Below are positions 25,665 through 58,761 of a stretch of 64,000 nt of DNA, one piece after another; position 1 is the first letter of the stretch, and the number at the start of each line of letters is the position of its first letter. Source of the stretch: Caenorhabditis remanei (lineage: Eukaryota > Nematoda > Chromadorea > Rhabditida > Rhabditidae); NCBI RefSeq assembly GCF_010183535.1, contig NC_071333.1, positions 8,864,587 through 8,928,586 of the forward strand, written 5' to 3'. The notes under the pieces were generated by a model that made no database searches, was not told the origin of the DNA, and saw only the letters and a list, made by a program, of their open reading frames with translations. The translations under genes and the position numbers were made by a program.

Positions 25665-26184
25665 ACAAAACTATTCTTCTCCACATTCACAACCAAATCC
25701 ACGGAAAATGGGTCATAAGTTTCGAAAAAAATTCTCGAAAGTTCTCAGTCTTTCAACTATTCATTATTTTTATCTTCAATTGTTTTTGTATTATTTCACA
25801 GTATACATATATCTTTCATTTTGCAGTGCAAAACTGAAGCGAACGAGGTTTTCCAACTACGTATTTGTCTTTCTTGATTCCCACCTTACTCACTTGTCTT
25901 TCCCTTGTTTTCTTTTCTCTCTAGAATCAGTCGATTCATTTGGTAACATCTATGATGTCATATTTATTAAATTAATTAACAAATCCATGAAATAAACACT
26001 TGCTTTCCTGTGAACAAAGCGAAATTGGCAAAAACAAAAAGAAATGAGCCCGTGAGAGAAGAAGAGGAAAGATGCGTGTAGATAAGTTTCAGTATCTAAT
26101 TGTGATTGCTGAGTTCAAACTTTGACAAGCGTACGAACTCTCTTCGAATCGGTCCAAGTGGTTGAGAATGTAGTTTTGTCTAAA
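25665..26184. other. Gap between convergent genes
   Basis: It holds the 3' UTR of the BPI/LBP-like gene on the plus strand and that of the complement-like gene on the minus strand. Nothing else was seen. Confidence 0.6.
25991..25996 (+). terminator. Poly(A) signal AATAAA
   Basis: AATAAA about 330 bases after the BPI/LBP-like stop codon, in the short gap before the convergent minus-strand gene. Confidence 0.5.
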
Positions 26185-29100
26185 TTACTCCATATAGTAA
26201 TTCCATACGTATTTACTAACAAACCTTCCATAGGAATCAGAATTAAGACCATCTTCATGACCCAGAACGTAGTAATCTCGTTTCAAGGTTTTCTCTCCCG
26301 GTGTGCAACCAACATTACATGATCGAAGCCACACCCTTACTTTCTCTGAATTTGTCTAATTTCATTGTGTCTCCTATAAAATTTCTTACTTGACAATTCA
26401 AATGCTCCAGCGCCAATACCGTTGCTATCTTTAACCAGACCATCGTATATTGTGTAGTTAGCTCCATTCATCAAAGAGGAGCTTATTGAAGTGAGTTCGA
26501 AGCGGACACCTAGAGTACCAAAAAATGATTATTGTAGTAGGGTTTAAATGGTACCGAAAAAGCCAGGAGTCGACAACAAATTTCGTAAATCTTTTGAATC
26601 ATCCAAATGACATTTATTGCATTTCACATCACATGTCGTCTCGGCACAAGAACATTCACCTGTAAAAAACTCACATAGGAATCTATCAGAATAAGCTATT
26701 TAACTAACCACCATCATAACAGACAGTATCGACAGCCGATTCATCAATGATTCGTCTCACAAATCTTGTCCTCGTGTGATGATGACGTCTTCTGCGTACA
26801 ACTACATCTGACCTTGGGACATCTGGATGAGCGATGAGCAACATTCCGACTAGTCCTTGTACAGGATGAGTTGCACGAATAGGAACAGGTGCAGACTTAT
26901 AAGGAATGTTTTTTCCTCCTTTCGATTCACTAAGTGCCACTTTATAACATATTGTTTCGTTTGCCCTGATATTAGTTAGAATGAAATGGAGACCAAGCGC
27001 TGATGATGTAGGGTTGATAGGTGTGTATGTTTCATTCTGAAATATAATATAATTGACAGGTGTTTCTAGTCACTTTCCTTCTTACTAAAAAGTAAAGCTG
27101 ATCTGGAGTAGCCGAGAATAACGTATAAGTTCCATGGAACATATCCAATGTTTTGATTGTTGGATTAGTTACACTGAAATATAACTATTACAGTAAGTTA
27201 TTCTTTTGAAAAGTCTTACTTAAAGCAGACTGTCTGATGAACAAAATTGTCTTGGACTTTCTGGTCAATTGATAAATGTACTGGATAGTAGTCGTCTTGT
27301 GTGAGGCCTCTCTTTGGTCTCGGTCGTTTTGTTGCAACAATTCTAGCAGCAACAACAGCTTTTCCGTGCCCTTTTGTTATCAGAGTTACGTAATGAATGT
27401 TGGTTGGAATCTGAAACGAGTTGTTTTCAATGCTGTAAGAAAATAACAGCGACGTACGTGAATTTCAATAGGACTCTCGGTGACATTAACTTTTTTCTCG
27501 GGACATCCTTTGCATCGAATTGTCACCTAAAAAGAATAGTGTTGCATACTAATTTTTTTAATTTTCATTACTTCTAAATGATCATTGAATGCAATTTCCA
27601 CTGATCTTCGCCGTTTTTCGTACAAAGATCTAGTCGCAACAAGTGTTGTGAGAGGGCTTCCATATGACCCATCACTACTCTGCTGCTCTGAAATCCAATC
27701 AGCCAATCGATCCCAATCAATCTCCGTTCCTTCAGCATATGCTGTCACAATAGCGGATAAAGCGAAACTGTTAACCATAACTTGACAACTCTGCAAAAAA
27801 TGTTATTCTGCTAGCACAAAGACGGAGCGTGATCAGGAATAGTGCTTCTAATTGTTTTTTATTGGATAGGGGAGCCGGAGCAAATGGAGAAATAGGAGAA
27901 AAAAGCGAGAATACGTAGGAGACCTCATTCGTTTTCTGGAAGGCCACTGGGCTGGTTAATCTATTTTTCCTATTGTTTTCGAGTTTTGGAAAGCGTTTTC
28001 AGCTGGTTCTCACCTCTCGTCTCCGCCTGAACGACTCGTTGTTTCTTTTCAATTTGTCGATTCGATTCGTTTCGTATCCACTACACTTCCAGTAAGGAGG
28101 ATGTTCTTCTGAGAAAATTGTTTTATAGACAAACCGAATTAGTAGGCAGAAAAAGAAAAGAAAAAACATTTCAGACAAAGCACATGAGGTCATTTTCTGG
28201 TTTCTACCCTACAATTAGCTCTGAAAGTTTTCGAACTCTCAAACTTTCAAAAGTTCAGAACCACATTCTATGTATAACATAATGGTTTTTTCAATGACAA
28301 ATTTAAAGAATATTTTTGTTTTTTTCAAAAAATTTGCCACTTACTATTTATTTTCGAAAGTAGATCACTCCTCATTAACTCGGCAGTCGCATTGGTTGCC
28401 ATAAAAGCAATTGCTGCAGAAGTTCTTCCATCCTTCACATTCGATTCATCCAGTTGATAGAAATATTTATGCAATTTCCCAAATGATCTTGTCTGTAAAT
28501 TCATTTTCCACATTTTCACGTTACTTTTGTTAGCCCAACCATATTTTTGAAGCTACTGCGATAGCTGGAGCAGTCTCGTGAAACTTGATACATAAACGAA
28601 ACTAGGAGGTATTTCTTATCCCCTGTGCTTTCCACGTCTATGATGTCACTAAGGTCCTCGTTGAAATCTTTACTTCCTAGTCTTGGAATATAGGCGGTTA
28701 TAGTTTTAAGAGATCCCAGCACTCTGTTTTCTTCCACATCTGCTTCACATAGAAGACTTGTAGCAATACTTGTCAATCTGAATATTGAGAATTTCAATTA
28801 GACTGGTTAATGTTTTAGTGTGGACTCACAAAATGGAGACATCTTTAGATGACTGTGGTTTTCCAAATTCACTGTACGCACATGGATCCTTTCTAGATGT
28901 GCAATTGGAGAACTGCATCATTTCATTGATCACTGAAATTTCAATTGTTCTGTCAAATTACAATACTCTATTAAAGAAACTCACAATCATTGATATTCGC
29001 TTCCATTTGATAAGAGGTGAATCCAGAAAGTTTTAGTTTCTTGAACTTATATAACACTACTGATAGCTCTCGGATGACCGAAGTGAGCATTCTCAATCCG

Positions 29101-32100
29101 TTTCTCTTGAATCTTGTACCCATCGACATTGTTGTTTGTCTATCATGGAGTGGAAGGAATTCTGTTCAAAAATGTGTTACAATTCACAATTTCTTCAGTT
29201 GTTTACTTACTTGACAATGTTATACTAAATGAGAAAACAGTTTCAGTGTCAGGAACATTTGATGTGATGAGAGTGTTAATAGTTTCAGAGTCATCCGTAG
29301 ATGCATGTTGGTCAGAGAAAGCTGAAATTTTCTGGTATTTTCTTGCTTCTAGAAAAAAGACAACCCACTTATCATTTTTGTATCTTTACTACTGGTGGAC
29401 CCTGGATCATCATTCATTGCCGTTACCAGCGGTTTGCTAGGATTTAGAATGTGTCTCTCATAATATTCTTCGGTGTCTGCTCGTTTCTGTAAACCGACGA
29501 AAAAAATTATTTTTTCCGTCTTGTGACTGAAAACACCTGGATCTCAACTTGCTTCCTTACAGCATCGAGTATTTTTCCTGTCTCGCAATTTTCTCTAAAC
29601 TTTATTTGATCAAAACACAATTCTAATATTCTCACTTACGTTCTCAATGTTACTGTCATGTTAACAAGACCTGGAGATAAAAATTTCATCATCAAGTACT
29701 TGCTTTGAATAGGAGAGCTCCTTGATACTTCAACTTTCATGTAATACGTCGTCCCTTTGTTTCCATTTGCTCCTTGATCCGCACAAACTTTTCTTGGCAG
29801 TTCTGACAGACAGATGACAAGTGTCTCTCTCGATTTCACTAAGTCAACTCCAGTTACAGTAAGGAGTGGACTGATAGTTTCATTAACGTAAACATTTCTT
29901 GGCATATCAACCTAAATAATCGCTATCATTCAAACAGCAGTTTAAAATAAAATATTAGTTACCTCCAAAAAAATGGGCTTGCTTGTCTGAATGTACTTTG
30001 TTTCTCCTGGAAATAAGGATGCTCTTCCATGCCACCAATAAGCGCTATTCAAAGCCCATTGACCGACGTTATCAGGTGAGGTAGCTGTAATCTTTTTTGT
30101 CCCATTTCGTCTGAAATTCGGTCAATTTGTGAATGTTATTCTTGGAATTCTTACTCAAGTACAATTGCGTCAAAAAGCCAAGTCTCCGGGAAGTGCTGCC
30201 GGATTTTGGGCTTTTGGACTATCACTCCAGTGTCGTGGAATTCACTGAAAAGTGATGTGGTTGATTTTATGGTTAGTTATAAAGAAATAGTCACTACATT
30301 GCAAACCCTTCTCTTTATTACCCGTATATTGAAACTTAATTCGAGTAAAGGTCAGGAAACTAAACTTAGAAACTAAAAAGAAAATAGTAAACATGCGGGA
30401 AAACACACGGTTTGACGAAGAGTGCATGAGGAGCATTATTTGTTTTTGTACGGAAAACATTGAGGCTTCCTAACCAGTTTGCACTTGAAGCGAGAACTGG
30501 CACCTTCCTTTCTATGTATGGGTTCATGATAGGAAGTACAGTAGCTGTAAATCAAAAAACTAAAACATATCAGATTGCTTTACTGACCTGATGAATTTTT
30601 ATAACAGCTTTTCAGAACATGCTTCAGGCATTTCTCGGAGACGAGAGAAGTGGACCGCTGCCCTTGTTCACATCTGAAACGAAGTTGGTGCCCCGCTGCG
30701 GTACACACCTCTTCTGAAAATAAGGAAGGATTGTTGAGAAGATTTGTTTTTTTTCAAGCAGTTCACTCACTCATAGTTTTGTCAACTTTTTCTTCGTTTA
30801 CAAGATTGAGAATCTTTGCTCCTAAAGATTGTTGTCCAAATATCATATAGTCCTGGTACTCGTGTGTCATGTAATCATTTTTCTGAAATTTTTAATGTTG
30901 GTTTTCCATTTTCACATATAGTTTTAAAAGCAGGGAGTTAAATGCTTCTAGCATTTTTTTTCTAATGCACATTTCCAAAGAAATGAGCAGATTTATCAGA
31001 TCAGTCCAAGGTCGAATCCAGTTAGCTTTGATCTGAATTCATTCATACTTACCAGTGTAATGTAGTTCAATCGTTCATCCATGGCTCTATAAAAAACGAT
31101 GGCTTCTGAGTGTCCTGTAAATTCTAATTCCATCTCATCTCCAGGTTGAATAGCGTCATTTCTTCTCAATTCTTTGCTCATTCCGTTCGAAACCTTTGAT
31201 ACTTTCACTTTACAATCCTGAAAACTTGTTATTTTTCTCTTAGTTTTTTGTTTCCCTCCTTATTTTTTTTCTCACAATTCCAGGCGATTTCGTTTTTCAC
31301 CCGATTCTGACTTATTCATGTTCTGTTTCTTTTGTCAGCTTTCCACAAGAGCCTGCCATGAAGTATATAATGGTGACACACTTTTTTTCAACTACCGTTG
31401 CAGAGAAAACCTATTAGATCTATGGGAAATTTAGGAAGTATAAAAACAAACAACTAACCTCACAATAGTTGTGTACTCTGAACAGAAAAACATCCGAAGT
31501 TAAATCGGCGGAAAATGCTGTGAGAATACAAGTTCCCTCCATTTTATCGGTAATTTTTATTCGGAGAATGTTGTTTTTGACATCATTCGGAACGCGGTGT
31601 ACAGTGTGTGAGTTGCAAATTATCTGAAAAAAAGTCGTGTTCACATTTTTAATCACTTCAATGCACACAGAGTAATTATTAAAAACCCTTAACGCATTTC
31701 AGTTTTTTTTTTAAATTTCTCGACTGACTTCGAGGAAAAAATAAATCCATTCGCAGATCTCCATGGAAAACATATTCGAAAGAAAGTCCAAATGATGCCG
31801 TTTTTAATTCGGAGCTATTCATTTGAATGTTTCCTTCATTTCAATTTTCACAGCAACGTTTTTCAATAGCAAGAGTATTCTTATGAAAAGCAACTAATAT
31901 TTCCTCCTCTTCAATTTTTCTCTTTTTCTTACAAATATGCATAGATCAGAATGATGGTAATTGAATTTTCGAAAAAAGAATAGCATTTGATTATTTTTCT
32001 CATGTTACGATTTTCAACAAAAAAAAAAGCAGGGAGACACAATCTTTTTTAGGAAAATGCTTGGAAATTGTCTAAAATCGGATCTCATTTTTTCTAAATA

Positions 32101-35100
32101 TTCTTGGAAGTCAGTGTTCCCTTTGTTTTTGGTTTTAAACCCAAACAGGAAAGAATATAAATGAAAGAGGAAATGAAGTTTTGCCTGAGTCTTCTCTCCT
32201 CTCAAATTTTTATCTTGTTACGGATCTAATCCGTTCAAACTGGAACGCTGGAACATGTGCAAAAGGTTCTGAAAACATTTTGTTCCATTTCCTTCTTCCG
32301 CTTGATCTTTCAAGTATTCACCAAAAATTTTGTTCCACTCGAAGTGCGCATTTTCTTTTTTTGTCGTCCCTTGTTCCTTTCATTTTCTTCTTTTCGCTCA
32401 TTACTCCTAACTTTTTATGTCATTCATTTCTTGCTCGTACTCCTTTCTTCTTACGAACGTTGCAGACTCGGTGTACTACTGTTATGACGAATTTTCGGAA
32501 TTCTTATTTTTGGCAAGGAAAAACACATAAACCATCAAAAAAGTAATAAACTTGCGTTTTCCATATCTGAGTAATTGCTTCAGAATCTGAATTTTAGTGT
32601 TGAAAACATTAAACTACAGTAATTCATTCGATAATTACCCTTTTTGGATGAATAATTGTTAATTGTTACAGTAATCCATTTTTAGAAAGAGGCGGAGCTT
32701 AGATTCATGAAAAATTCTCAGTAAATAAGCCTAGTGTAATAGATAGATTATTCTTTTCAAAAAAGTATTTTTCTTTGGGTAAAAAATAAATCTTGTGCCA
32801 TATTGAAGAGAAAAGAATAACAAAAGTTCAAGGGTTCGTTATTTTTCAATTTCGTACCCAAATCTATTTTGTTTTAGTTGTTTTGTGAAGCCACAATGTA
32901 TCTATAGACACTTGAAAAACCTATCACTTAAAATTCAACGCATGCTCTCTTCCAAACACCGACAAAGAATTATTCCGAGAATTTGAATTTGATGCGAATG
33001 ACTTTTTGCGAAAATGGTGGCTTTATTCGATTTTTAAATTGGTTTTTTCGTCGTTTTTCTACATCGATCTACTTTTTCATTTTTGGAAATCTGCGATTTA
33101 TATGCTTGACGTATGTGACACAACGTTTTTTAACGATGTGTATGTGTAATATTTATCTTATTACATTCAAATCTGTCTGACAAATGTCTTTCCTAGCTGA
33201 AAACAACATCCTTGTCTCGATACAGAATGCACTGGGTGGGCGATGATCCAGATTGAAACGGTTATCGATAAGATAGCATTAAAATTGGATGCGGTGGCAC
33301 ACTACTTAAAAAAACAAGCGCCGAAATTCCATTTATACCAAGAATCATGGGAGCTTTGAAATTTCCAAAAAATAAATTTGTCAAATTTATTTTGGACCGC
33401 CCACACCTAGACAAGCCGAACGAAGAACCTATTTCCCTTTTTTCTTTTCTATTCACTAGGTTGGTATTTATTCATTTGGCTGATCATAATTCATCAACTG
33501 AATATAACTTAACGTCAATAAACCGGAAGACTGGATTATGCCTCATCTAGTGCCCAAATAAAGCATTGTTTGGTATTGAAAATATGTGGAGCACATCGGG
33601 TGTGATTACGTCTCCTAAAAGTGCTTCTAATTCAATTCACCGCGCTTGTTTTCTGAGGTTCATTTCTAGGGGCTTGTTTTAGTCTGGTTTTTATTTAGTC
33701 TGTTTTCTTGATGTTCTTGATTGTAATCTTTCTCAAAATTGGGGTCTTGAGTACTAAAATGCTTTTTGGGCTTTTAACCACCCACTTTTTAGTTGCTCTA
33801 TTCTTTTACGAACCCTCATGATACCCTAAGCCACCATAAGCTGTCTAACTCAACCCTTCTTAAGATTTGTATCAGATTTTTAGAGGGGCTTTGCTCAAAT
33901 CCGTAGGATATTTATTTGGCATGGAAACGTTAAATATTACTCTCATTGACTCACCACAAAATTCATCTCTTTTCCCGTGTTAGCTACTCGGATATTCATT
34001 ATCTCATCATCTCTGTAGAACGACTTTATTTCCTCTGGATTGATAAGAGAAGATTGTAAAGTTGTGCTGCTGAGATTTGGAATGTAAAGCATTGTCTCAT
34101 TACTGTAGCCATTTTTGATCTTCCGTTTTGCCTAAAATTTCATTTTGTTTTATTTTTGGTTGACGTGTCCGCTTACAACAACTCGTATGACGCTAACATC
34201 ATTCCGCCACTCATTCGGAATTCCAATTTTCAGAGCATCTCCGATTTTTGAGCTCACTTTAACTTCTTTTGTCCGCATAACATTGTTTTTCTCGGAAATA
34301 GATTCAAGACAAATACTCACATTACCATGAGCAATACCATCTCCATCAACCTAAAAAACATATCTTGTTTACCGTCATTTTTTTGTTTTCTCTTGTTCTA
34401 AAACAAGAATCCACACTCTATTCAATGGTCCCATCTCATTCTCATCCTACGCACTGGAGCTACGCATCATGACGTTTTTATGGAAACAAGAGATCCCACA
34501 TTACAATGCTCTCACCATTAGTTCGGGAAAAGAGGGCACAAATTAGATTCATTTTTGCAGATTTGTTCTCCGCCGGCATTCTCTGCTAACTTTCTTTGTT
34601 TGGCTCTTTCCAATTGTTGGCCTGATTTTTTTCTAGATGTTTAAAAACGCAATATTTTAAAACAATTTCCTAGGAGTGATTACGATCTGAGTGGAAAACC
34701 AATACGAGAACTTTTAATCTACAACGTAGTTTGATAATGTGTTTTATGGATTCTGAATGCCTGCCTTTATTGGCTAATACGTGTTTCATTCTGTCTGTTC
34801 CCCACAAAACAAACCATGAGAATAACATCCTCTGTATCACGGGTGAAGTACGGTCTGGTCGCGGTAATTGTAAATTTTGGAGCCATGATTTCCCAGCCGA
34901 GCACCAAGTCTTGACGATAACCGGTTCCATTTTCACGGGACTCGACAAAAATCTAAAACAATACAAGATTAACAACATGTCACACACGATTACCATAAAA
35001 ACGTGTTCTTTTGTTCGAACTCTTTTTTAAACATAACGGATTATGGCGCATTAAGAAGTCATCAAATCTGGGGATGATGACGAATCGCAACAAAAACACG

Positions 35101-38100
35101 ATGAAGAAGAGGAAAAACGTTATGTGCTTTATATCTCTAAGCATTCCGGCATTTTATTGCACGCGTTTTTTTCTGTTTCTTTTCCATGTTCTTCTATTTC
35201 ATTTCCTTTTTTGAAGAGCTTCATAAACAACTTCCTTCTCTAATTAACCTCGTCCTCATCTCTCTTTCTCTATTTTCAATACTCAGAATCAATCTAAGAA
35301 GGTTTTCTTTTGTTAATGATATATCCTGGAGAAGAATAAGTGGTAATCTCCAGGTCATCAATCATGCCGGATCTCCTCTCTTATAATGACATACCTCTTT
35401 TGGAACTGGATTCGTTGGGTCGCATTTCCCGAGGTCCACGATGGAAGACCAGATACCATTGTCAAACTGAAAACGAAAAAAACATGATATTGCGCATTTG
35501 ATCATAGTGTTTTTGGGCTCATTAGGAAATAATGACTCATGTATATGCGCGTCTTCGTTTTTTTCCCACACTTGCAAAAAAAGCTGTCTACTCTTCTTTA
35601 TCTTGGTGCTCACCAATTTTTGGTTGGTTTCAGTCCATATGTGTTCGTGTTTTACACTAAAACATATAGTTGCTCTATTCAGTTTTTCAAGATGGCAACT
35701 TTCTCTCAGTGGTCATTTAACATTCAAATTTCTTCTGAAAATTCAACCATTTCCAGATCCGTAGTTAAGCTTACAAACAGAAAACAGAGCTTACACCCAC
35801 ACCCAATTCAATCTGTGATTATTATACTCAGAACGGCGGCTGTGAAATGCGTACGGCTTCTGTTATCCAGAAAAAATTTGAAAAATGGAGTTGACATGTC
35901 TTTTTAAAAATTTAGTTATGATGGCTTAGTAGAAAAATAGTTAACACGAAAGAGGTCAATTCGAAAATGAATAGTTCCAATTTTTCTGTTTTCAGAATGA
36001 AAGGAGAAATGAAAACATACATTCCTCGGTTTTCCTGATTTCGCATTTCTCTTATTTGTTGTTCATTTTCTTTCAATTGTCCTATTTTATATTTTACGAC
36101 CTTACAGTACGCCTAACCAGACTAGTCGTTTGTACTATAGATGAACAACCTCTCATGGCCTTCGGCTTTCATGATTAGGACTGTTTTCACTTCCTCTTCC
36201 AATTTCTCTTTGGAATTATTTTCGGGAAAACTGACAGCTGCTAGCAAAACCCATTTGTGGCGTTTGAAGAAGAATAACGGTTTTAAGAATAATTTTATAT
36301 AACTTTATTCCATTCTTTGTTTTCTTTTTCACTTCTTTTGACTTGGTAATATTATGCAAAATTTTTCCGGGAACGTGTAGAAGGAGAATTTTTTAATTTT
36401 TAATATTCAGATAATACAAATAACGTTTTAGAAGCACTAGTTCCACGAAAAGCGAGAAAATCTTTCTTTTTCGCTCCAAAATAATTCTTCTAACTCCCTC
36501 AACTCATAAAATTAGCCTGCACAGGTGGTTATAAAAGATCACTCCAGAGATCTTCATCTATAAACCTCCAAGTATGTCCTCACATGGAACTTGAGCAATG
36601 CTCAATTCGCAAAAAACGCATAAATTAGTTTTGTTTATGCTGGAATTTTTATCGCTGAATGAGAAAGAGTAAAAAATAGGAATGAGAGAGAACGAAAAAG
36701 TTTGCCGTAGCAAATCGTCATATTTACACCAGTTCTATCTTTTCATCATCATTCATCCAAGTTCCTTTTTTTCTTGGTAGCAATTTCAGGCAATGTTCTA
36801 ATTCAAGAACCAAACCATCCTTTCATTTAGGTTTGTGATCTTTAAAACACTTTTTGTCTTTTTTTTTCTCATTTCCCAATCTTAGAATGCGGAACGGATT
36901 TCTTTATGAGATAAAATAAGATGAGGAAAAGAGGCGGGAAGCCAATAAGAGCTAAACCAAAACAGAGCGTTGAAGAGTCAAGTGACGAATATCAAGGGAG
37001 TCATCTAGTCCATTTAGAAAGAAGGTTTATTTTAATCTAAAACACTTTAACGGATTGCCAACCACACTTATCGTCTTGTATTCAGCTTAATAAGATTCTT
37101 GAACCACTAATTTGCCGCCTACACCAAGAAATAGCCAAATAACTCTTCCTTTTCTCATATTCCAGTATTTCTAGTTACTACGATAAATTGTGGTCATTGA
37201 GTCGAGTCGAACACACATACTTATATTGGGTTCCCTATTACAGATCAAAACAAAATCATAAAAAAATGAGAAATGTGTGTTCATTCCAAACGCATGTGTC
37301 TTGGTCTTAAATTGGTTCAATCAAATCTTTCAATCACATTATCGCTTCTCGTTTCTCAAGCATTGCATTCCAGCCCTTTTGGTACCCTTTGAGACGTTTA
37401 CTTTAGGCTCTCCAAAAGAAAAAGAAGAATTCCGAATGCACACTTTACATTTGTTCCTTTTCCCAGAAGTACAATTGAATATTCACCTATCTCATTGCAC
37501 TTCTCTCTTTTCGGACCAAAAAGTTGGAAGCTTAAAGGAAAAACGAAGGAGAAACATTTGTCTACTTTTTAGTTGGACTACTGGGACATGCACACTTTGA
37601 GTTCTGAGGACTTTCAAAGCATTACTCAGGATTTCAAACTATGATTTAAAATTCTGTAGCATCGTTCAAAAAGTTTTCTCACGTCTCAGAAACATTTCCA
37701 GCGTCTTTCTTAGTAGCCAAGCATACTGAAGACGATTGCATGTATTCTTCTCATGTTTTGACACTTTTTCTACGCGTGGTGCCAGAATATGAAATATTTT
37801 CATTTGAGAGCAGCGGACCCACCCAACTCATAGTGTTCTATTTGATTCTTGTCTATGTCTCCACTGTCTACAACTTCCTCTATTCTTGGTCGTTTTCTGT
37901 ATTTTCCAACTTTTCATTATACATTGTTGATTTCAAGTCAGCAAAAAAGACAGAAAACATCTATTGAGTCTTTTTTCCTACAATTTGCTATTTTATAAAT
38001 TCCAAAAAATGATGAGAACGTCAAAAAAGCGGGGGTCTTAGACGGACCCTATTGAGCCTTCTCTAGCTTCCAAAAACATCATTTTTGGACATAACATTTG

Positions 38101-41100
38101 CAGCTGAGCTTGTCATCTTTCATATATCCGGCTGCCTATGTATAAGCTCCAATTTCAAAACACAGTTAGCTATTGCTTCTGTACAGAGAAAATCAGACAT
38201 CTTTAATTTTCAGCTGCCTACTGTCTTGATATTCTCAGGCTGACAAAACATGATCACAGCTCGAACAAATATCAGTTCACTCGACATTCCCTTATTCTTC
38301 CCAGTCCTTCTGTTGTCCGTTCTATCCTCATTAATTTTTTTTCCCAACAATCACATATCGAAATTTCTATTCTTAGTATTATTTGTATTCCGTCACGGAT
38401 TTTAATCAAAAACTTGTTTTGTTACTTTTTCTCCTGGCTTTCGGCTTCATATTCCGCGCCACCCAACCTAATCATTTCCTCGTTCATTCGTTCATTGTTC
38501 CTCTATATTTTCGTTTATTCCCTTCTCAAGTTACAATGTTTGGCAGAAAAAGGATGGAGGCCGACAATTCGACTGTCATCAATCCGGTGGCCCCGACGTA
38601 TCTTATTAGTGATTATATCGAAATCGCCTACTTGGGAATGGTTTTAATGCTTGGGGTGCCAGCAAATGTTGTCATTCTGAAGAAGTTAATCAAAGAAATG
38701 AAAGCGTGCAATCGTGATATGGTCAAGGTTGGTACTATTGTAACCTTTGGACAAGCTGTTTATTTTGTTACAGAGTGGCTTTGTGATGTTGAAAATCAAT
38801 CTGAACATTACTGATCTTCTCATTTTGACCTACTCATTGGGAAAACTGATTTGGCTCATCACTTATAGATGGATTGGAGGAGACATTGCCTGTAGAATGT
38901 ACCAGGTGGGAATACCAGATTCCTAACAAAAAATATGACCTTTGATTTCAGATGTTCTCCATGTTCTCCTTATACAGTTCATCTAACATTGTGATGTGTA
39001 TTGCGTTGGATAGGCTCAGAAATGTTATCTATGCAAACCAAATTCATACCAAAACAAGCAAGGTAAGTGGTTCTTATTACAGTACAAAAGTTTGGTAAAC
39101 TTGGAAAAACTTCTTATTTTTTCAAAATTTGCACGCGTGGGCTAACTAGTCTGTTTATCTATTGCTAGGAAGAAATTCTTAGAATTTGCATAACAAAAAA
39201 CCTATTTAAGGGTGTGCATTTTAAATATGTTTACGTGTTTGAAATATTTTGAAAGAGGAAGTGTGTCAGTTCAAAAAGTGTATTTTCAGATCAGTACTGT
39301 CAAAGTGCTCGCTTACGGTTCCTGGTTAGCTGCCTTCGTTTGCAGTTTGCCCCAATTTTTCCTTTTTCAAACGGTCGAGGTTAACCCTAACTTTATCCAA
39401 TGCTCGGATGTCTGGCAGATACGTCGTCACATTAAGAAAGAGAACGAGTATTTTCCTGAAGAATCATTTGTTTTGACTGAAACTTTCGAGAATATATACA
39501 ATATTGTTCACTTGGTAGGATTGAGGTTGGTCTCAACAAGTTTGATTACGATTCTGATTACAGTTCTTGGTTTTCTGGGGACCATTGATTGTACTCATTG
39601 TGACATACGCTGTGATTGCCACCAAACTAATGAAATACTCGCTTAGAGCACCTGGAACTCAAAGTGTCAGGCGACCTATGCCAACTGCAGCTGATGATTC
39701 TCCGAAAGGTTAGCACTAGTAGTACATATCAAAAAACAACCCATTTTTTCCAGATGTCATTGTTCATGTCAATTTGGAAGATGGTCTACTTAAGAAAGAT
39801 GGGAGTTTTAGAAAAGTGAGTAAGAGATATTTAGGAGTCTAGGTACCTATGAAAGATTCATATTTCCATTGTTGTCCTAGACTGATTATTTTTTCCATCT
39901 GCTTCTGGATATACAGAATAACATATTAAAACAAGAATAGAACAAGATACGGTAACTGACTCATATTCTATTTTTTCAGGTGGTCAAGTGTTGTAAGGAA
40001 GAATTAATCCCCAAACAACACCGAAAGAAATCCAACCGAAAGAACGGAGGAAGTGGGTTCAATTTTTATGGAACACATTTTTTCACAAAAAAAAAACTTT
40101 GTAGAAGACTCAACAACCACTACATCGTCGACATCGACACGTGTACCAACGTGGCGGAAACAAATGCGCAGTCGGGTGTTCCGAACAACAATGCTCGTGA
40201 TCCTCACCCACTTCCTTTTCTGGTTCCCATATAATGCACTTGGACTAATGAAGTATATTAATCAGGGGATGTTCGAGTAAGTTACACCTCATCTCGTCAG
40301 TTTTTTTTCAACAAAAAAGATTTGCGCATGATATTTCAAAAAAAAACTTTGAAACGTCAGCATACACTTTGTATGTTTTCAAAAGGGTAATTCGGGATAA
40401 AAAAAACGTATTTATTTTGTTGGAATGATGTCAGGTTTGTAGCTTTTTGAAAGAGGGAGTGTGCTGTCAGTAAGCTTCTTGACAGGTTTACGAGTAGTCG
40501 TAAAACTTTTCCAAACATCCGTACCAAGTGGTCGCTGTTCTTTTTTTGAACAAAAAAATAATTTCCAGGGGGTGGAAAAAGTAAGAATAATAGTTAACAT
40601 TTTTGCAGGGTTCTCAGCGCCAATGCCAATATCTTCAAAGATTTGCAAATTCTCATCACCCTCATCAATCCGTTCCTTTATGGATTCTCTACAGGAAACT
40701 AAATTTTTTTAATAATTATCATAAATCAGCAAACACTAAAATGATCTCGCACTTATTTGGTTCTTTTAATAATATTTTGGACTTGACTATACACGTGGAC
40801 ACTAATAAAATTTCAGTTAGAAAAAACCACTAAACTAGTTCTTGAATGATTTCAGAGTGCTAAAAGAGTCCAAACCGACAAATGGCTTCTGTTGTTGGAA
40901 AATTTGTTCGGGCAAACGGAAAACATGATTCACAAGAAACGGTTGTTTTCAAGAAATTTAATTGTACTAATTTAACCAATTTTCGCTGGAAGCTTGGAAG
41001 GGGACAATATACTATAAATTTCATAGCAGTCTGCTTTCTGTTTTACAGTTTCCAGCAAGATATTAAAAACCAATGGATGTGTCAGAGATCTGCTGACCGA

Positions 41101-44100
41101 GCTCGTACTTATATTATTCAATTTGTCTAGGAAACAATTCAAATTCAAAATATTTCCGGAAACTAACCTAACAAAAATTTCCTCTCTCAACAAGTGATTC
41201 ATATTCATACATCATGTCCTCTCTCGGGTTTATCCAAAAGCTTATTCTACTCAAAACTCTATATACTAAAAAAAAGAAACTTGTCTGAAACGTCATTCAA
41301 ACATGTGAACACATCGACGCCCCATATTATAGTTGGATTAGAGTTGGTGAAGATGAGCTCGTTTCAAATCTGAGGTGTTTGATCTGTTGGTACCAGAATA
41401 AAACTTCCGTAGCATATTATATATTTAGTGTGTGTTTATTCTTATTTCATTATTTTACTCATTACTAAGAAATGTGTCGCTTCTTTTTTCTATCGGAATA
41501 TTGGGATATTTGTTTTGGAACGATTTGTTCTGAATGAACTCATATCTGTCTTCCAAAGGAATCCTTTTTCTATCAGACATCCATGTTTAGACAACCTCCA
41601 AGTTATTAAAACCACCTACGCCGGAAAAGAAATCTCAATCTAGATTCTTTCTTTGTGTCCTTCTTTTCATTTCTTCACTTCCCTTTTTTCTCTGTATTTT
41701 GAGTCTGCACCTATTTTTTCTTATTCCTCATTTCATCGATGAGCAATGAATATCATTAGATGATATGGTAATGACGAACAAACTAATTAGCACGATTATA
41801 TTCCGTCGGGAAGACACAAATTTTGTTCATTTTGCGGCACGACTCCGCCCATTTCGTGAGTAGGAGGGCTCGTTGTCTGTTCTCTTTTTTGTGCGGATCA
41901 CTCCATTGCACTTGGTTTCGAAACTTGGAAAAGATCCCCACAATGATTTCTGCTGCCCAGGGCATTTTCCATCGTTTCAGTCGTTTTATGTTTACATCTT
42001 GTGTTTATGGGCCAACATGCCACGTACTCCATTTTCTGTTATTGTCCCAGAAAGAGAAGAATAGGCTTGAACGTTCTATTTTTGCTTCTTCTGGTTATGG
42101 TCCACTTGTTTTTGTGGTTCCACGGAAAATGACGAGCCTTCTCCATTTAGGAGTGGGTGGTCTTTCCCACGAACAATTTACAAGTCTGTGGTCGTTTAGC
42201 CGGAATCTGAGGACAGAATTAAATTTCTTGTTCTCATGCCAGTTTTTGGAATTGGATACATAGGAAGTTGATTACGATGTCTCGATTCGGATATTTTTCT
42301 CAAGCACTTGATCGTTGTCTATGAGTTCAAGTACAATAGCTAAACTAATCGTTTCTGTTCTTTTTTACAAAAAAAAGAGTCGTCATTTCAAAACGTCAAT
42401 TCTTGTTGTTTGGCAACGAACTCTTGAAAATTCTAGCCACTTCAAAAAACCTCGAGACCTAGGGCTTGATCGTAGACAAAAAATGAAAAATGCATATACA
42501 TGACCAATTCGGATGCGAAGTTTCGTTTCTTATCGAACAGAGACGGAAAAACTGGTGAGGCGTACAAAAAGGGTCCCAGAAAAATTGATAGCGCCGAACT
42601 AAAAGTTATGTGCAGCGATGCAAACGACTTTGAAAAGCAATTATCGTGTTTTTGTGTTCAGTTACCACTTATTGCCCTTCCACCTTCTTTTGTTCTAACA
42701 CGTTCTTTCATGTCTAAAACGTTTTTCTTGCTAATCCTGTTACATTTAGTACTGAGAAAAAAAAACATTCGGTGCATAATCCACTTCTCATTGTCTGTAG
42801 ACGCTGACATTCAGTTCAACATATTGGATCTCAACCTAGGTTAGTAGACAGATGACTGAGCGTTGGTAGCCTGAGGATCATTTATTATGTGTTTTTGTTC
42901 ATTTTCTCATCCATCTTTTGTGGTCCCTTACTGAAGAAGCGCACAGGAAATCAGTTCATTTCCTTTTTTCCCTTTAACCTCGAATGAGAAATTGTTAGTT
43001 TCCTAGATTCTGATGGAATAAGATAGTGTAAGATTCTTTTCTCTCTTCCGAGGCATCCACATGTTTGTATCTTTATTAATTTTGCCTCTATTATATCTAT
43101 TTAAAAAGAGGGTATGGAATGTAGAATTTAATTAGAAGGGCAACGAATCCCCCATCCTGAGCCGGAAAATTACTGGAAGAAGAGTCGTTCGGAAAAGAAC
43201 GGAAACGTATCTAACAGAAAAAAACACGCTTAGAAAATAGCAGAAATACTACTAAATTTAAACAAAAAACTAATAGTGAACGCCTAAAACTAGGTTTCAC
43301 AGTTATGATTTCCCTTTATAATCTTAAAATTTAGTGTTTTGTGACATGTTGTTTTTGTGACACAGCTAATGTGAGAGTTTAGTTTATCCTTGCGATATAT
43401 CCTAATCTCCCGCTAGGAATTATTACTCAAATCGGTCATGCAATACTATGTAGTAGCGGAGAAAAAGTAACATAAGGTCTCTGACACTCTAGTTTTAGGA
43501 TAACGATTGAAAATCGTCTTAATATAAGTTACTTTCTTGCTCACAATGGTTCTTTGAGCCTCTATCTTTTTTTTAAAAACATTTTTGTTGACATAAATCA
43601 AACGAGCAAAAACGTATTACCACTAGAGTGCCTTTCGGACCAAGAGGTAGTCCAAGTTCAAGGTCTTTGGAACGGCGAGGCTCCACCCTCCGTTTGGAAT
43701 GCTCTTCGGTTATGATGAGTCGCATGTTTATCTTCTTCGCTCTGGCCGCCCGCACACGCATTTGCAAAATTTCAATTTCCGCCATTTTTCTTACTCATGG
43801 GGACAGGGGAGCCTTGGATTTACTCCTAAGAAGGCTTGAACGGCCGAACTAGTTGAAAACGAGGCAAAAATGAGTTTATTATTTTGTTGATCACATATGC
43901 CTACCGGCTAGTTCCGTTTGAATTGGAAAATTGAAGCGGCACGATAGAAAAAAAAACGACTGGGGCTAAAAAAATAGAAAACGGGATCTACGTCATTATA
44001 GCACTAATGTTTTATTTTACTTTTTATAACTGTGAACTTTGAAAAATGAGAAAGTGTAAAGAGTCAGAAAAACTTTTTAGCATTGCACTTTGGATAAATC

Positions 44101-47100
44101 TCATGATTATTCAAAAAAAATTCTCAGCTTTGGTTATGAGTTTCTTCCATAGTTCTCATTCTAGACAATTTCTGATTCTCACCCTTTGAATCTAGAGATT
44201 CTGAATAGAGATAAAAGGTTCTTATACTGAAATTCAAAAACAACTCTGTTCCACTTTCTCCTATTTCTCGTGTGCTTTTTCATTTGTCCCATCAACATTC
44301 ACAACCCTATTTTTCTCCGATTCGCTATTTTCTCCGGTAATGATGCCACTTATGTTGTCGTAAAGTTTTAGCTCACAGTTGTCGCGTATGATTTTCGAAT
44401 TAAAAAACAATCACATGATAAAACATAGGCAGATAATTTGCTTCAATTATCTCGGATGGACGAGAAAAATAAATCGATCTTTTTCCAAAAGGTGGGTGGA
44501 GCAATTATTGTGCTCCGTATTATGCTCCGTCTAAACCTAGTTATACTGGTTTTATTTCTTTCTTTTTGCTAGTTGTTCACTTTTTCCAATCTTATTCAAA
44601 TAAATCTCTGATCTATTCATTCTCAAAGAACACCTTACACAATTCCAGTTAATTACATTAGAAAATAAGAAAATATTTTTGGTCATTTTTTTTCAATTTA
44701 CATTACGTGAGTCCGCCCCCCCCCCCCCTCTTCCCACATTTGAACACTTTTTTTTTGTAATCTCGAATGCTCACTTCCTCTTTTTTTCTTGCAATTCGGC
44801 ATATGTTTTATTGGCTCGTTGTGCATAAGATGAGAAGAAACAATTCTCGTGATTTTCTTCAATTTCTTCCTTATGTATCTATAGTACCATTGCCTAGTCA
44901 CTGAAAAAAGGAAAAGAAAAAAAGGCACTCAGTTCCGGGAGGCCACCTTCCATATTTTGGTCGTCTTTGCTATGTTCGTTATGTTAGGAACGTATCCATT
45001 TCTAATTTCCCTCTTATTTTCCTATCTTCCACCAAACACCGTCCGTCATTCTTTTCTTTCTACTTGTACATATAACTTCCCTGTCACTTAGTTCAAACAA
45101 ACAAGTTTTCTAGTCCTCTTTTTTCCTGAAAAAAAGTGTTGACCCAAGGACAGTGACGGGAACACAACAAGATAGGAAATTGCAGCTGAATTCAATTGAA
45201 AAGAGGAGAAAGGGGGTGTTTAAGATTGAGAAAGTCCTTCGACTTGTTTTCCTTTCACCCGAAGAATATATTCTTGGTTTGAACCCAGACTTGAATAACC
45301 AACATTCATGAATCCTATTCTTGTTATTTCTGTTATTTCTTTTGGTTTCATGACTTCTTTGACTTTATGATTAGAACACATATTCTAATTTTAGATGTTG
45401 GAGACGTCCACTCGGATGTCAACAGTTATACCAGAAAGGTTATGGTCAGAAGTAACAGAAGCAAGTATACTCCTGGTTTGCGATGTTGCTTACTGTTTCG
45501 TCGCTCTTATTATGTTATGTAAATTGATAAAACAACCCAAGTGAGCGGATAACACAAAAAATCACAGTTGACCAAGCTGCTTACAGAGTAAAACGCCCAG
45601 TTATTCATAATGGGCAATCGGGAAGCAACAAATCGTTTTTGCTTTTTAAGAAAAGTTTGTTCGTCAGTGACTGCATGATCATGTGGATTTACGCATCTGT
45701 GAAGGTAAATTTGCATGTAATAGGAGAAGGTGTTCCTTACGGATTGTTACTGATGCCAATATTTAAACAGATAGGCAGACCAATCTCTAGCTCACTCAAA
45801 TAGTGATTTCAGGCAGCGTGGCTGCTACAGTTTGAGTGGAAGTTCGGAAACTTGGGATGCAAAATGTATAGGTACTGGTCATCTGTAGCGTTCTTCTCCA
45901 ATTCGAATACTGTCTGCGGAATCGCTGTGGATAGGTACCTAGCAGTGTACAGTAATCATATCATTGGTGAGTCTCTATGTAAAAATTAAAATATTTGAGC
46001 TCAATCACAAACGGTCTTCAAGTAATCCATTATTTTGTAAAAAACAAAAAGAAAGTTTTCCAGGCGCTCGTCAATATGAAAGAACTAAGAAATTGTTATA
46101 TGGAGTCTGGCTAATTGCTGGAATTGCGGCTCTACCTCAGATTTTTGTCTGGGAGACATACCGTCCAAGTTCCGAAAATTGGGAACAATGTGTCACCGTG
46201 TTTGCAATCAAAATTCACAAATTGCCAACTGATTCTCCGATACGAAATGAAATCAATTTTCATTCAATGCTCTATGAAGCATATCACCAAGCAATGTCAT
46301 TTTGGTTGCCTCTCAGTGTCACATTTTCTTGTTATGCTCGTATGTTGAGCCGACTTATCCCATTCTGGCCATTCAATGTGCTCACTTCTTATGAAGATGA
46401 GAGACAAGAAACGTAAGACAATAAAACATGTTACGTTTAGTCATATTGAAATTGCAGACTATGCACAATATTCTGGAGTAAGATGACCGACAAGATCAGA
46501 TATTTCTGCTGTGGAACAATATTCCGGCGCAAGAGTTACGTTTCTCAGCAATCGGCAAGAAGTAGTGAAATATGATCCTGATGGAAGAGAGTAAACAGTT
46601 CTTTTTTCAGTCCCTCTTGCTGGTACGACGCGTCACCCACCCACTACGGCTTTACGACGACAACTTGGGACTACAGTGTTTACGAATGCCTGTGCAATTA
46701 TTGTAACTCATGTTGTTTTATGGATGCCATATAATATAATCAGTTTATCAAGGTTTGTTTGTTTTGTCTCAATTTGATACGTATTGTTGTTTTCAGATTT
46801 GTTAACGAAGGATTCTATGAAATAATATCTCAAAATGGTGGCAACCTCTGCGAACTTCTCATTCTTCTCAGCTCATTTGTGAACCCAATTCTTTATTCCG
46901 GTGGCACGAACACTGTGCATCGAGTCTAGTCATCCGACACACATTTTCAGACAAAAACTTAGATAAATTATGTATAAATATTTTCGGCTACAATGCATTT
47001 GTGATCTATGTCATTATTTTTTGATGTGCTGATTTTTCTCTCCCTCTCACACGTTTCTTTTCTTTTCCATTATCTGGGTTTGCGGGCTTTTACGTTGGAA

Positions 47101-48430
47101 TTAAAATAATAAATGAGTTTTTAGAAAAAAAGAACCCCACCTCTCCAGACTTGATGTGAGTCAGATGACTGCGGTCTTGCGATGAAGATCCAACCTCGCG
47201 GCAGTACACATGAACTGAACCATTCACGGGTTTTCCATGGAAATACCTAAAAACAATGAAATATTCAAACGAAACCTTATGTGTCATCGTTTTGGTGTCT
47301 AATACGGCGAGAATTGGAAAGTTTGTGCTCTTGGCGTAGAATGCTCTTTAATTCAAAAAAGAGAAACAAAAAGCATCGGGGAGAGAAAACTCACTTTGCT
47401 TCGATTGTTATTTTGGTATCATCCAAATTGCTACTATCAGTTAAGAATCCGTAAAGTCTGTAGTTTGGAAGATCTGAAAGATATTTTCACGTATTTTATT
47501 AGTTTCAAGAAAGTAACTCACCATAATCTTGTACTTGGAACACTTTTCCAAAAGTCAACAAATCGTCCGATCTCTTGGATCCAATTTCCACTGGTTGCAC
47601 TTTCACCACCCAGTCACCAAAGAAAGTATGAGATGGAATTTCCAGTTGTTCAATAATCATGGAGTTGGTTTCATCTACTTTTCTTGTTCTTAGTGTTGAA
47701 GATTCAACAAATCCTTTTCCGTTCTGCAATGAAAACAAATAAGAGGGAAAATCAAAAAAAGTTGCAACTTACCACAAGACAAATGCTGAGATCGCCACGA
47801 TAAATACTTCCAGAATGTGTGAGTGGTAGAATACGTACGTGCACTGTAATCAGTAATTGAACTTGGAATATTGAAATTGAAATGCTAACCTGTCTCCGAT
47901 TTCCGATAAATAGTTTTGTCGATATGAATATGAACATTGAATAAATCTGGTCGCACTGGAATATTTGTATTCAGTTCTATTTTTCCGTCAACCTGAAATT
48001 AAATCTACTGGGAACGAAATTATTGGTAGTATTACCTTAATCATGATATGTGCAGTGGGTTGACTTGAACTGGTATGAAATGAAATCATTTGTACATCAC
48101 CTGCAAACTCGGTTTGATAATATGCACAACATTCAGAGGCTCACCTTGAATTTCTTTATTAGTCTTTTCTCCTCCATGATCTATTTGCACAACTGATTTT
48201 ACTGATTTTTCCTGTAATCGCTCAAATGTTCTTGTTGTGATACTTATAAATTCGGTTAAAACTCACATTAACAATTGTGATAACATTCTGCTCGTTCAAT
48301 TTCAAAAAAGGTGGCAAGACAATGACCGGGCTACTGAAAATTAGTACTCGTTTTGATCGCTAATTTCAACTTACCTTGTGAGAACTTCACACACAAAATA
48401 TGTGATAAGAATAACTGTAGATAACCTCAT
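26185..48430 (-). CDS. Complement C3/C4/C5-like protein without thioester (about 1,677 aa)
   Basis: Thirty-seven exons chain in phase from ATG 48430 to TAA 26185-26187; the exons total 5,034 nt. Order: signal peptide (MRLSTVILITYFVCEVLTS); MG1; MG2 (IHIDKTIYRKSETVHVRIL, exons 47890-47992 and 47773-47843); MG3-MG6; a four-Cys anaphylatoxin-like module (30588-30713, residues about 641-680); the macroglobulin landmark HFPETWLFDAIV (30155-30244); MG7 (29640-29911); a TED (about residues 990-1340) with no GCGEQ; MG8 (26709-27036); and a C345C/netrin-like C-terminus (exons 26555-26659, 26390-26509, 26185-26345) with RSCNVGCTPGEK and YYVLG. Length and module positions match C3/C5. It should be secreted. 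The intron 35467-47140 contains two GPCR genes on the opposite strand. Polybasic runs lie in the TED and in MG8. Not CD109 or A2M, which lack the anaphylatoxin and C345C modules. Confidence 0.85.
31624..33954 (-). other. 2.3-kb intron of the complement-like gene
   Basis: The flanking exons (33955-34131 and 31459-31623) join in phase 0 without needing another exon. Open frames inside are short and unconvincing on both strands. Confidence 0.5.
35467..38535. other. Intron of the complement-like gene, upstream of the first nested GPCR
   Basis: No coding exon recognised. This segment is intron for the minus-strand gene and must carry the promoter of the plus-strand receptor starting at 38536. The frame at 37277-37600 is open but has no splice partners or family match. 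Confidence 0.45.
38536..40702 (+). CDS. GnRH/AKH-receptor-like GPCR (401 aa), nested in an intron
   Basis: Nine exons join in phase: 38536-38727, 38774-38905, 38952-39062, 39290-39514, 39564-39708, 39754-39815, 39980-40052, 40105-40276 and 40609-40702 (TAA). Rhodopsin-class features: an N-terminal sequon (NST); TM2 region INLNITDLLILTYSLGK; WIGGDIACRMYQMFSMFSLY leading into TM3, typical of GnRH/AKH/corazonin receptors; ALDRL in place of DRY; TM6 ILTHFLFWFPYN; TM7 INPFLYG. The third intracellular loop is long and basic, and the tail is very short. An in-frame ATG 153 bases upstream exists but would add a hydrophobic leader; I chose the ATG giving a polar N-terminus. I recall gnrr-6 and gnrr-7 as a neighbouring pair on X (cosmid F13D2) and suspect this is one of them, unchecked. 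Ligand unknown. Confidence 0.85.
40804..40809 (+). terminator. Poly(A) signal AATAAA
   Basis: AATAAA about 100 bases after the stop codon of the first nested GPCR gene. Confidence 0.55.
43573..43785 (-). CDS. Possible small basic protein or gene fragment (up to 70 aa)
   Basis: The frame opens with ATG at 43785. For about 55 codons its composition is coding-like, rich in Arg, Lys, Glu and Leu (MAEIEILQMRVRAARAKKIN...), in a patch more GC-rich than its surroundings. A GTAATA donor sits after codon 55 (GPKGTLV), but I found no convincing next exon. It lies in the large intron, on the same strand as the complement-like gene. It could be a short gene, an unannotated exon or a decayed fragment. 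Confidence 0.2.
   Translation of the reverse strand: MAEIEILQMRVRAARAKKINMRLIITEEHSKRRVEPRRSKDLELGLPLGPKGTLVVIRFCSFDLCQQKCF
44716..44728. repeat. Homopolymer C13 tract
   Basis: Thirteen consecutive C, preceded by CCG, on the plus strand; the minus strand carries the G-tract. Such tracts can form G-quadruplexes, and in C. elegans long G/C tracts are known to be unstable without the DOG-1 helicase. Confidence 0.9.
45395..46929 (+). CDS. Second nested rhodopsin-class peptide-type GPCR (381 aa)
   Basis: Seven exons join in phase: 45395-45540, 45587-45704, 45813-45966, 46064-46412, 46458-46561, 46611-46752 and 46797-46929 (TAG). The ATG follows directly on TTTTAG, a likely SL1 trans-splice acceptor. 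Features: TM1 LLVCDVAYCFVALIMLCK; WKFGNLGCKMYRYWSS before TM3; a good DRY (GIAVDRYLAVYSNH); TM4 WLIAGIAALPQIFVW; Cys in ENWEQCVTVF for the disulfide to TM3; TM6 IIVTHVVLWMPYN; TM7 SSFVNPILYSGG. Its domain order and its W..GN..C.MY signature resemble the receptor at 38536-40702, so the two are probably paralogues of the GnRH/AKH-receptor-like group. A gnrr gene is a reasonable guess. Exon 5 must end at 46561, since reading on meets a stop 14 bases later. Confidence 0.85.
46930..47140. other. Remainder of the large intron
   Basis: It holds the 3' UTR of the second nested GPCR and the donor side of the complement-like gene's big intron. No other feature was seen. Confidence 0.5.
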
Positions 48431-53500: not shown

Positions 53501-54498
53501 TGGTTCAAGTAGTTGCATGAGATGGGAGTGGAGAATTCGTTAAGAAGTGGCTGACCGACAGCGCATGGGTTGAAGTATTCTGCAAACGGGTGGGAGGGAA
53601 AATGTGTGATGCATTCCGATATATAAAGGGAGTCGCAACTAATACTATATCTATTTGTTTATTTATTGACATATAATTATCTTTTAAGTGCTTGCTATTG
53701 AAACTCAATAAAACTGCGTTCGATTTAACGCCGGTTCGGTCAGAGAGGTTGAACTATTCGATCACGCAGACAAACATTACAAGAATGCCTGGGGTGGGTT
53801 GCAAAAAACAACTTACTGGCTTTTGTTTGTTTGCGCTCAGGACGCAAGTACTTTGTTGTGGGGGCAACAGTTGTCTCGGGTGCTGGAGTTGGGTCAGTAT
53901 GCGATGGAGCCATAGATGGAGTTGACTCAGGAGCAGGAGTTTCAAGAGTAGTGGTGGTTGTTGGTGGCTGAAATTCTCTATGTGTGGTTTAGTAAGAGAA
54001 TTACAGTGATACCTGAGTGGTAGTCTCGGTTGTTGTTTGTGGTGTAGTGATTGGTACACCAGCAGTAGTTCTTGGGTATGTGATTGGAGGCAATGTACTT
54101 GGTGGTGGTGTTGGAAGAGTTGGGAGTGGAACTGGAACTGGGTTCACTACTGGTCTAATTGGTCCAGGTGCTGATGGAAGAGTACGGATTTGCACTTGAA
54201 CATTTGGTCGGATATCTGGAGAGAAAGATATGCGAATAATGACAAAAATGGAAGTATACTTACTTGTTGGTCTCACATTCCACCTATACCTAGTCTGCTG
54301 GTTACATCTGTTCTGGCAATTAGTCCTCACTGGATAATACATTGTTCTCTGTTGCTGAGGTTGCATGACAGGACGGACCTGTTGTTGCATGTAGTACTGT
54401 AATATTATAAAAAACTATTAACAACATTCATTCCTTATTGGTTTACCTGTGATAACACAAATGGCACTAAGGCCGCTATGAGGAGCAGCAGTCTCATG
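50594..54498 (-). CDS. Secreted multi-Kunitz, Cys-rich protein (1,042 aa, eight Kunitz domains)
   Basis: Twelve exons join in phase: 54448-54498, 54264-54396, 54013-54215, 53817-53967, 53247-53579, 53005-53172, 52758-52925, 51927-52709, 51569-51880, 51193-51513, 50842-51146 and 50594-50794. Order: signal peptide (MRLLLLIAALVPFVLSQ); a Gln-rich part; a Pro/Thr-rich linker of about 120 residues; then lustrin-like Cys-rich modules (NPC..G.PLL ... CP...YCH.G ... CCP) alternating with Kunitz domains (RWYFD...C..F.YKG..GN.NNF...C...C). Kunitz domains 1-7 lack the second and fourth cysteines; only domain 8 has them (SGPC and YGGC). It should act outside the cell, in cuticle or matrix, judging from neighbours and family. 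I recall it as C34F6.1, unnamed. Exon 51927-52709 encodes two Kunitz domains; one carries an extra SCSRQC insertion. Confidence 0.88.
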
Positions 54499-58652: not shown

Positions 58653-58723
58653 GCAGAAAAAAATCCACAAGTTTAAGAAGGCGTGGCAAACTTCCTTGTT
58701 CCGTTAGCAAGTAAGTATAAAAG
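58653..58723 (+). promoter_or_regulatory. Collagen promoter block with TATA box, second copy
   Basis: It repeats the block of the first collagen: GCAGAAAAAAATCCACAA, GTTTAAGAAGGCGTGGCAAAC and a TATAAAAG box at 58716-58723, 39 bases before the ATG. Near-identity in non-coding DNA suggests shared regulation. Confidence 0.6.
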
Positions 58724-58761
58724 AAAATGCTTGGAATAGTGAAACCACATCAGACAGTGCA

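What the first reader, a model, noticed from the sequence alone, without database searches (positions are those of the whole stretch)
26185..48430. A complete C3/C4/C5-type complement architecture in a nematode
Seen: 37 exons that close in phase give about 1,677 residues. The order is signal peptide, MG domains, anaphylatoxin-like module, HFPETWLF landmark, MG7, TED, MG8 and C345C/netrin-like end. Known: A2M, CD109 and insect TEPs lack the anaphylatoxin and C345C modules, while vertebrate C3, C4 and C5 have both and are 1,660-1,740 residues long. I know of no described nematode protein with this whole set; C3 is usually said to be missing from C. elegans. Inference: a diverged complement-type effector survived in this lineage.
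Basis: partly seen in the sequence, partly recalled or inferred. Interest (0 to 1): 0.92.

Follow-up and report, generated by a model that had tools for sequence, protein, structure and literature searches.

The report
Complement-like protein hidden in nematodes

The parts
26089..48430 (-). Whole coding span, 38 exons, 1,656 aa, thioester-less complement-type (C3/C4/C5-like) macroglobulin
   Evidence: model; 1168 of 1170 identical to P0005; orthologues
48375..48430 (-). Exon 1: start codon and signal-peptide-like hydrophobic start
   Evidence: signal peptide judged by eye, no predictor run
47522..47992 (-). Exons 5-7: MG2 region
   Evidence: Pfam MG2 105-187, E 0.001, below its curated cut-off (on the 1,617-aa model); above cut-off in relative P0007
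35467..47140 (-). Intron 9, 11,674 bases, splitting MG3; hosts two GPCR genes on the + strand
30588..30713 (-). Exon 17: anaphylatoxin-like Cys module (aa 607-649), four invariant cysteines
   Evidence: for, in 2 of 4 sequences; 2 of 4; against
30155..30244 (-). Exon 19: HFPETWLF landmark, start of the Pfam A2M stretch
29211..29321 (-). Exon 24: VPDTET, like VPDTES before the TED of human C3 (the C3 motif is recalled)
28985..29161 (-). Exon 25: start of TED; thioester GCGEQ absent, RFKR|N (aa 976-979) at or just before that position
   Evidence: RxxR in 12 of 12
27572..29161 (-). Exons 25-30: TED-like helical domain without thioester
   Evidence: Pfam TED_complement 22.3 bits, cut-off 22; in C. 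elegans P0002 19.2 bits, below cut-off
28014..28108 (-). Exon 29: TED loop with RRRR|E, conserved as RxxR in 6 of 11 only
27220..27410 (-). Exon 32: CUB/MG8 junction with RPKR|G (aa 1340-1343), aligned with the RNRR of fish C4
   Evidence: 11 of 11
26709..27036 (-). Exon 34: MG8 end and linker with RRRR|H (aa 1483-1486) and RFVR|R (aa 1493-1496), then start of C345C
   Evidence: RxxR 10 of 10 for each motif; RX[KR]R 10 and 5 of 10
26089..26751 (-). C345C domain (aa 1498-1656, exons 34-38), signature CYDGGECSCAETTC

Best explanation
The window (Caenorhabditis remanei) carries one single-copy gene for a secreted member of the complement branch (C3/C4/C5) of the alpha-2-macroglobulin superfamily that has lost its thioester. 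It keeps the MG scaffold, a reduced anaphylatoxin-like insert, a TED-like helical domain and the C345C domain. Most likely mechanism (inferred): furin-type proteases cut it at up to four conserved sites (thioester position, before MG8, twice before C345C), giving chains held together by the fold and disulfides; it then acts non-covalently, as C5b does, binding extracellular partners or surfaces through MG and C345C. It should not act as a covalent opsonin, and release of a C3a-like peptide is unsupported. Shown: gene, conservation, predicted C345C fold, thioester loss, conserved RxxR motifs. Inferred: secretion, actual cleavage, chain structure, partners, role.
Confidence: 0.72

Rival explanations
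1. It is a diverged A2M/CD109/TEP-type protein (a tep-1 paralogue) that gained an unrelated C-terminal netrin-like domain by convergence.
For: Single-sequence search ties C5, A2M and CD109; Pfam gives A2M bait-region hits in P0007 and Necator; two database names call it A2M domain-containing; an RRRR motif before MG8 also occurs in fish CD109; VIA on the poor long model lists CD109 and TEP1 beside C3/C4/C5.
Against: Grouping with tep-1 rejected, p-AU 0.005; profile score 169 for C3/4/5 against 79 for CD109; the domain sits at the C345C place and the 50 listed VIA entries are complement factors (a family not listed is not excluded); the signature with CxCAE matches fish C3 and C4.
Confidence: 0.15
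2. It is the nematode counterpart of arthropod MCR proteins, thioester-less macroglobulins.
For: Both lack the thioester (PMC4833078 passages); MCR-like P0011 is the best non-nematode hit of the second homologue search, E 1.2e-14.
Against: P0011 has an LDL-receptor class A domain, not found in P0002, P0007 or P0008; the tree puts P0011 with CD109/tep-1 (97/96), and nematode+MCR gives p-AU 0.039. P0011 as held ends about 50 residues after TED, so a C345C in it could not be tested. That P0011 is an MCR is my label, from its LDLa domain.
Confidence: 0.08
3. It is a working classical complement component: activation cleaves off an anaphylatoxin and the rest opsonises or starts a lytic complex.
For: Domain order; the exon 17 module beats shuffles against human C3a in C. 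remanei and C. elegans; C. elegans has a factor H homologue, CFH-1 (PMC12633222, PMC12632885).
Against: No thioester in 12 of 12 and no shared RxxR near the module; module not recognisable by sequence in P0007 and Necator and the family test fails; no MACPF match in the genome, searched exon by exon only (weak).
Confidence: 0.07
4. Artefact: two adjacent genes split by the 11.7-kb intron, wrongly fused.
For: Entries from C. briggsae, C. tropicalis and C. japonica begin after the large intron (P0003, P0004, P0006); two GPCR genes lie inside.
Against: MG3 is split across the intron and reads on in phase; the C. elegans, C. brenneri, P0007 and Necator proteins contain both halves, P0007 on a contig too short for introns.
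Confidence: 0.04

Closest known systems
Complement C5 (vertebrate)
   Same: MG scaffold, insert with anaphylatoxin-like Cys pattern, TED without thioester, C345C; C5 is among the best C345C fold matches
   Different: Two of six anaphylatoxin cysteines missing; no furin-type motif before the module; RxxR at the thioester position and before C345C; 18% identity in the profile alignment
Complement C3 and C4
   Same: C345C fold and CxCAE signature; fish C4 has a furin-type motif at the same CUB/MG8 junction
   Different: Thioester motif absent here
C. elegans TEP-1 (ZK337.1) and the tep-1-type gene on contig C1
   Same: Same superfamily; the only C. elegans member discussed in the sections read of PMC12633222
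   Different: The C1 gene has GCGEQ and IHHKDM; TEP-1 has no anaphylatoxin or netrin domain according to PMC12633222 section 5. That the C1 gene is the tep-1 orthologue is inferred from its type and chromosome, not tested
Arthropod MCR (macroglobulin complement-related)
   Same: Thioester lost
   Different: LDLa domain (P0011); groups with CD109/tep-1

Membership tests
Complement C3/C4/C5 | MG-domain scaffold with MG7 and TED | tested here: met
   Pfam MG3, A2M and TED just above cut-off in the 1,617-aa window model, but A2M and TED below cut-off in C. elegans; profile hits to C3/C5
Complement C3/C4/C5 | C-terminal C345C domain | tested here: met
Complement C3/C4/C5 | Six-cysteine anaphylatoxin domain | tested here: not met
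   only four invariant cysteines in 7 sequences
Complement C3/C4/C5 | Anaphylatoxin-like module at the right place, allowing a lost disulfide | tested here: inconclusive
   beats shuffles in 2 of 4 sequences; family profile: 27 of 200 shuffles reach it; helices only at low confidence
Complement C3/C4/C5 | Thioester GCGEQ (C3 and C4; C5 lacks it) | tested here: not met
   absent in 12 of 12 sequences
Complement C3/C4/C5 | Beta/alpha furin site before the anaphylatoxin domain | tested here: not met
   no RxxR cluster there; all 5 RxxR of the window protein lie elsewhere
Complement C3/C4/C5 | Alpha/gamma furin-type motif before MG8 (C4) | tested here: met
   11 of 11; aligned with fish C4 RNRR; also in fish CD109, so not specific
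Complement C3/C4/C5 | Phylogenetic grouping | tested here: inconclusive
   91/89, not starred, long stem, 13 rows
A2M / CD109 / TEP | Thioester motif | tested here: not met
A2M / CD109 / TEP | No C345C domain after MG8 | tested here: not met
   C345C present
A2M / CD109 / TEP | Groups with tep-1 | tested here: not met
   p-AU 0.005
Arthropod MCR | LDLa domain | tested here: not met
   absent in P0002, P0007 and P0008, present in P0011
Arthropod MCR | Groups with MCR | tested here: inconclusive
   p-AU 0.039, one MCR row
Complement C3/C4/C5 | Activation by convertase, surface deposition or MAC initiation | not testable with these tools
   needs protein biochemistry

The most novel reading that the evidence does not exclude
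Rhabditine nematodes, C. elegans included, kept a complement-branch macroglobulin and exchanged its thioester for a protease-processing site at the same spot: a complement factor switched by furin-type cutting instead of covalent chemistry, and a candidate partner of the worm factor H homologue CFH-1, showing a role of complement proteins older than immune lysis.
Probability: 0.3. Interest if true: 0.88.

Novelty: new variant of a known kind. Interest (0 to 1): 0.74.

Why it matters
The sections read of a 2025 preprint on the C. elegans superfamily (PMC12633222: abstract, sections 3, 5, 12) discuss TEP-1 as the worm's AMCOM relative and state that the anaphylatoxin and netrin domains of C3/C4/C5 are not found in A2M, CD109 or TEP-1. 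A second member with a C345C fold changes the starting point for asking what complement proteins do in a worm that has a factor H homologue, and makes it a genetic question in a standard laboratory animal. It would also extend the complement branch to strongylid nematodes, and the conserved RxxR motifs suggest how a thioester-less family member could be controlled.

Tried and rejected
Three-frame Pfam scans of the unspliced plus strand and of one minus frame found nothing useful; exons are short. The first self-trained splice run put exons into the big intron that I dropped as false (its exons 10-19). The gene name T14B1.1, recalled, was looked up: the passages seen of PMC3521710 do not say what T14B1.1 encodes, so the name is NOT used. 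Domain-only PDB and Pfam searches failed, and so did the family-level anaphylatoxin comparison. VIA on the low-confidence long model did not separate families; TIMPs and netrins are not in the 50 VIA rows of the C345C model, which does not exclude them. Searches of print for a nematode protein with this architecture; none seen in the listings or passages read; most listed papers were not opened and most subscription papers are not in that library. MACPF and ANATO scans of the genome gave no match, but they work exon by exon, and for ANATO nothing rang in the controls either, so absence is not shown.

Papers: PMC12633222 abstract/outline and sections 3, 5, 12; passages only of PMC12632885, PMC4833078, PMC5489563, PMC9835746, PMC3521710; PMC9363628 and PMC3701546 one passage each, from the reference list.

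Full report
Place and gene. The window is part of a 130-Mb genome in 186 contigs with SL2 RNA genes; the gene product equals a protein named C. remanei CRE_07473 at 1,168 of 1,170 aligned residues, so the species is taken as C. remanei. The finding lies on the minus strand. A self-trained splice search, hand inspection of missed exons and comparison with annotated orthologues gave 38 exons and 1,656 residues, 48430 to 26089. All 37 introns are GT-AG, which the search imposed. Exon 18 has two possible donors: the C. remanei, C. brenneri, C. briggsae and C. tropicalis entries use the long form, C. elegans and C. japonica the short one. An exon-level genome search with P0005 listed 20 matches, all at this place (only the best candidates are scored), so I take the gene as single-copy.

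One gene or two. Intron 9 is 11,674 bases and contains two rhodopsin-type GPCR genes on the plus strand (7tm_1 E 3.5e-23 and 4.8e-30 for pieces stitched by eye). Three Caenorhabditis entries start only after it. Yet the C. elegans, C. brenneri, Necator and P0007 proteins contain both halves, and P0007 (1,676 aa) sits on a 5,062-base contig, too short for introns. One gene is the better reading.

Conservation. Identity is 84% to C. elegans and 85% to C. brenneri over the whole length, 78% to the C. japonica entry over 83% of it, 38% to P0007 (species not given; taken as a nematode) and 31% to Necator; Trichostrongylus has two partial entries, and Angiostrongylus and Ancylostoma have relatives. 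The searches scored only the candidates sharing most words (7,987), so absence elsewhere is not shown.

Which family. The single sequence cannot decide: C5 5.5e-12, A2M 7.7e-12, CD109 9e-12. The nine-protein profile prefers C3 (7.8e-26) and C5 (1.2e-24) over A2M (3.5e-24) and CD109 (1.6e-22), the A2M margin over C5 being small; it aligns in one stretch to C3 residues 26-848. Profile-profile comparison gives E 9.2e-19 (score 169) with three fish C3/C4/C5 proteins, ending at column 1501 of 1509, and 3.7e-8 (score 79) with two CD109 proteins, ending at 1416. In a 13-row tree the family joins fish C3/C4/C5 (91/89, not starred; stem 2.76), while grouping with the tep-1-type protein of this genome is rejected (p-AU 0.005) and with one MCR protein weakly so (0.039). 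The tep-1-type gene on contig C1 has GCGEQ and IHHKDM.

Anaphylatoxin-like module. It is one exon (30713-30588) between MG6 and MG7 with four cysteines invariant in seven sequences. If disulfides are C1-C4, C2-C5, C3-C6 as in C3a (recalled), loss of C2-C5 leaves exactly four; this is an inference. C. remanei and C. elegans beat shuffles against human C3a (0-5 of 1,000 reach the score); P0007 (878; 887 with Cys fixed) and Necator (258; 310) do not, and a nine-sequence profile against five anaphylatoxin domains does not (27 of 200). Helices are predicted there only in the poor model. I call it inconclusive.

Thioester and RxxR motifs. GCGEQ is absent from all 12 sequences compared (window, five other Caenorhabditis, P0007, Necator, two overlapping Trichostrongylus entries, Angiostrongylus, Ancylostoma). 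At or just before its place stands an RxxR motif in 12 of 12 (RX[KR]R in 11); the alignment there is loose, with an insertion of about 16 columns. Further motifs: before MG8 11 of 11, where fish C4 has RNRR and fish CD109 RRRR; linker before C345C, two motifs, 10 of 10 each (the second RX[KR]R in only 5); a TED loop in 6 of 11. Four of the five RxxR motifs of the window protein coincide with motifs in both P0007 and Necator; random placement gives 0.02 on average, at most 2 in 10,000 trials, block shuffles 0.05, at most 2 in 5,000. No cluster lies near the anaphylatoxin-like module. I infer processing by furin-type proteases; cleavage is untested.

How it probably works. A secreted, multi-chain, non-covalent scaffold like C5b is the most economical reading: the chemistry for covalent tagging is gone, the C345C domain and MG body are strongly conserved within Caenorhabditis, and peptide release is unsupported. 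Immune, cilia or matrix roles cannot be told apart here. PMC12633222 (sections 3, 5, 12) reports TEP-1 and CFH-1 acting on sensory cilia, which makes CFH-1 a sensible partner to test, nothing more.

Novelty. The names seen for the orthologues are A2M domain-containing, hypothetical or unnamed protein. The searches named under Tried and rejected showed no description of a nematode C345C-bearing macroglobulin in the listings and passages seen. I rate it a new variant of a known kind.

Noticed in passing
window 38500-40280 (+) and 45500-46930 (+): Two rhodopsin-type GPCR genes nested, on the opposite strand, inside the 11.7-kb intron of the complement-like gene (7tm_1, pieces stitched by eye); any closer receptor label would be by eye only.
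   Followed up: partly
window 50600-54450 (-): Gene upstream on the same strand with Kunitz and lustrin-type cysteine domains (ORF 51874-52725 scanned; further similar ORFs read by eye).
   Followed up: partly
window 56955-57755 (+) and 58708-59664 (+): Two ORFs with cuticle collagen domains (Col_cuticle_N and collagen repeats).
   Followed up: partly
L002-L003, contig C1 17085851-17090800: tep-1-type thioester protein gene with intact GCGEQ and IHHKDM, the only PF07678 and PF00207 match listed in the genome; the window gene escaped both exon-wise searches.
   Followed up: partly
P0017 (fish complement C5 isoform, 1,840 aa): Three six-cysteine anaphylatoxin-like patterns in one annotated fish C5 protein.
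   Followed up: no
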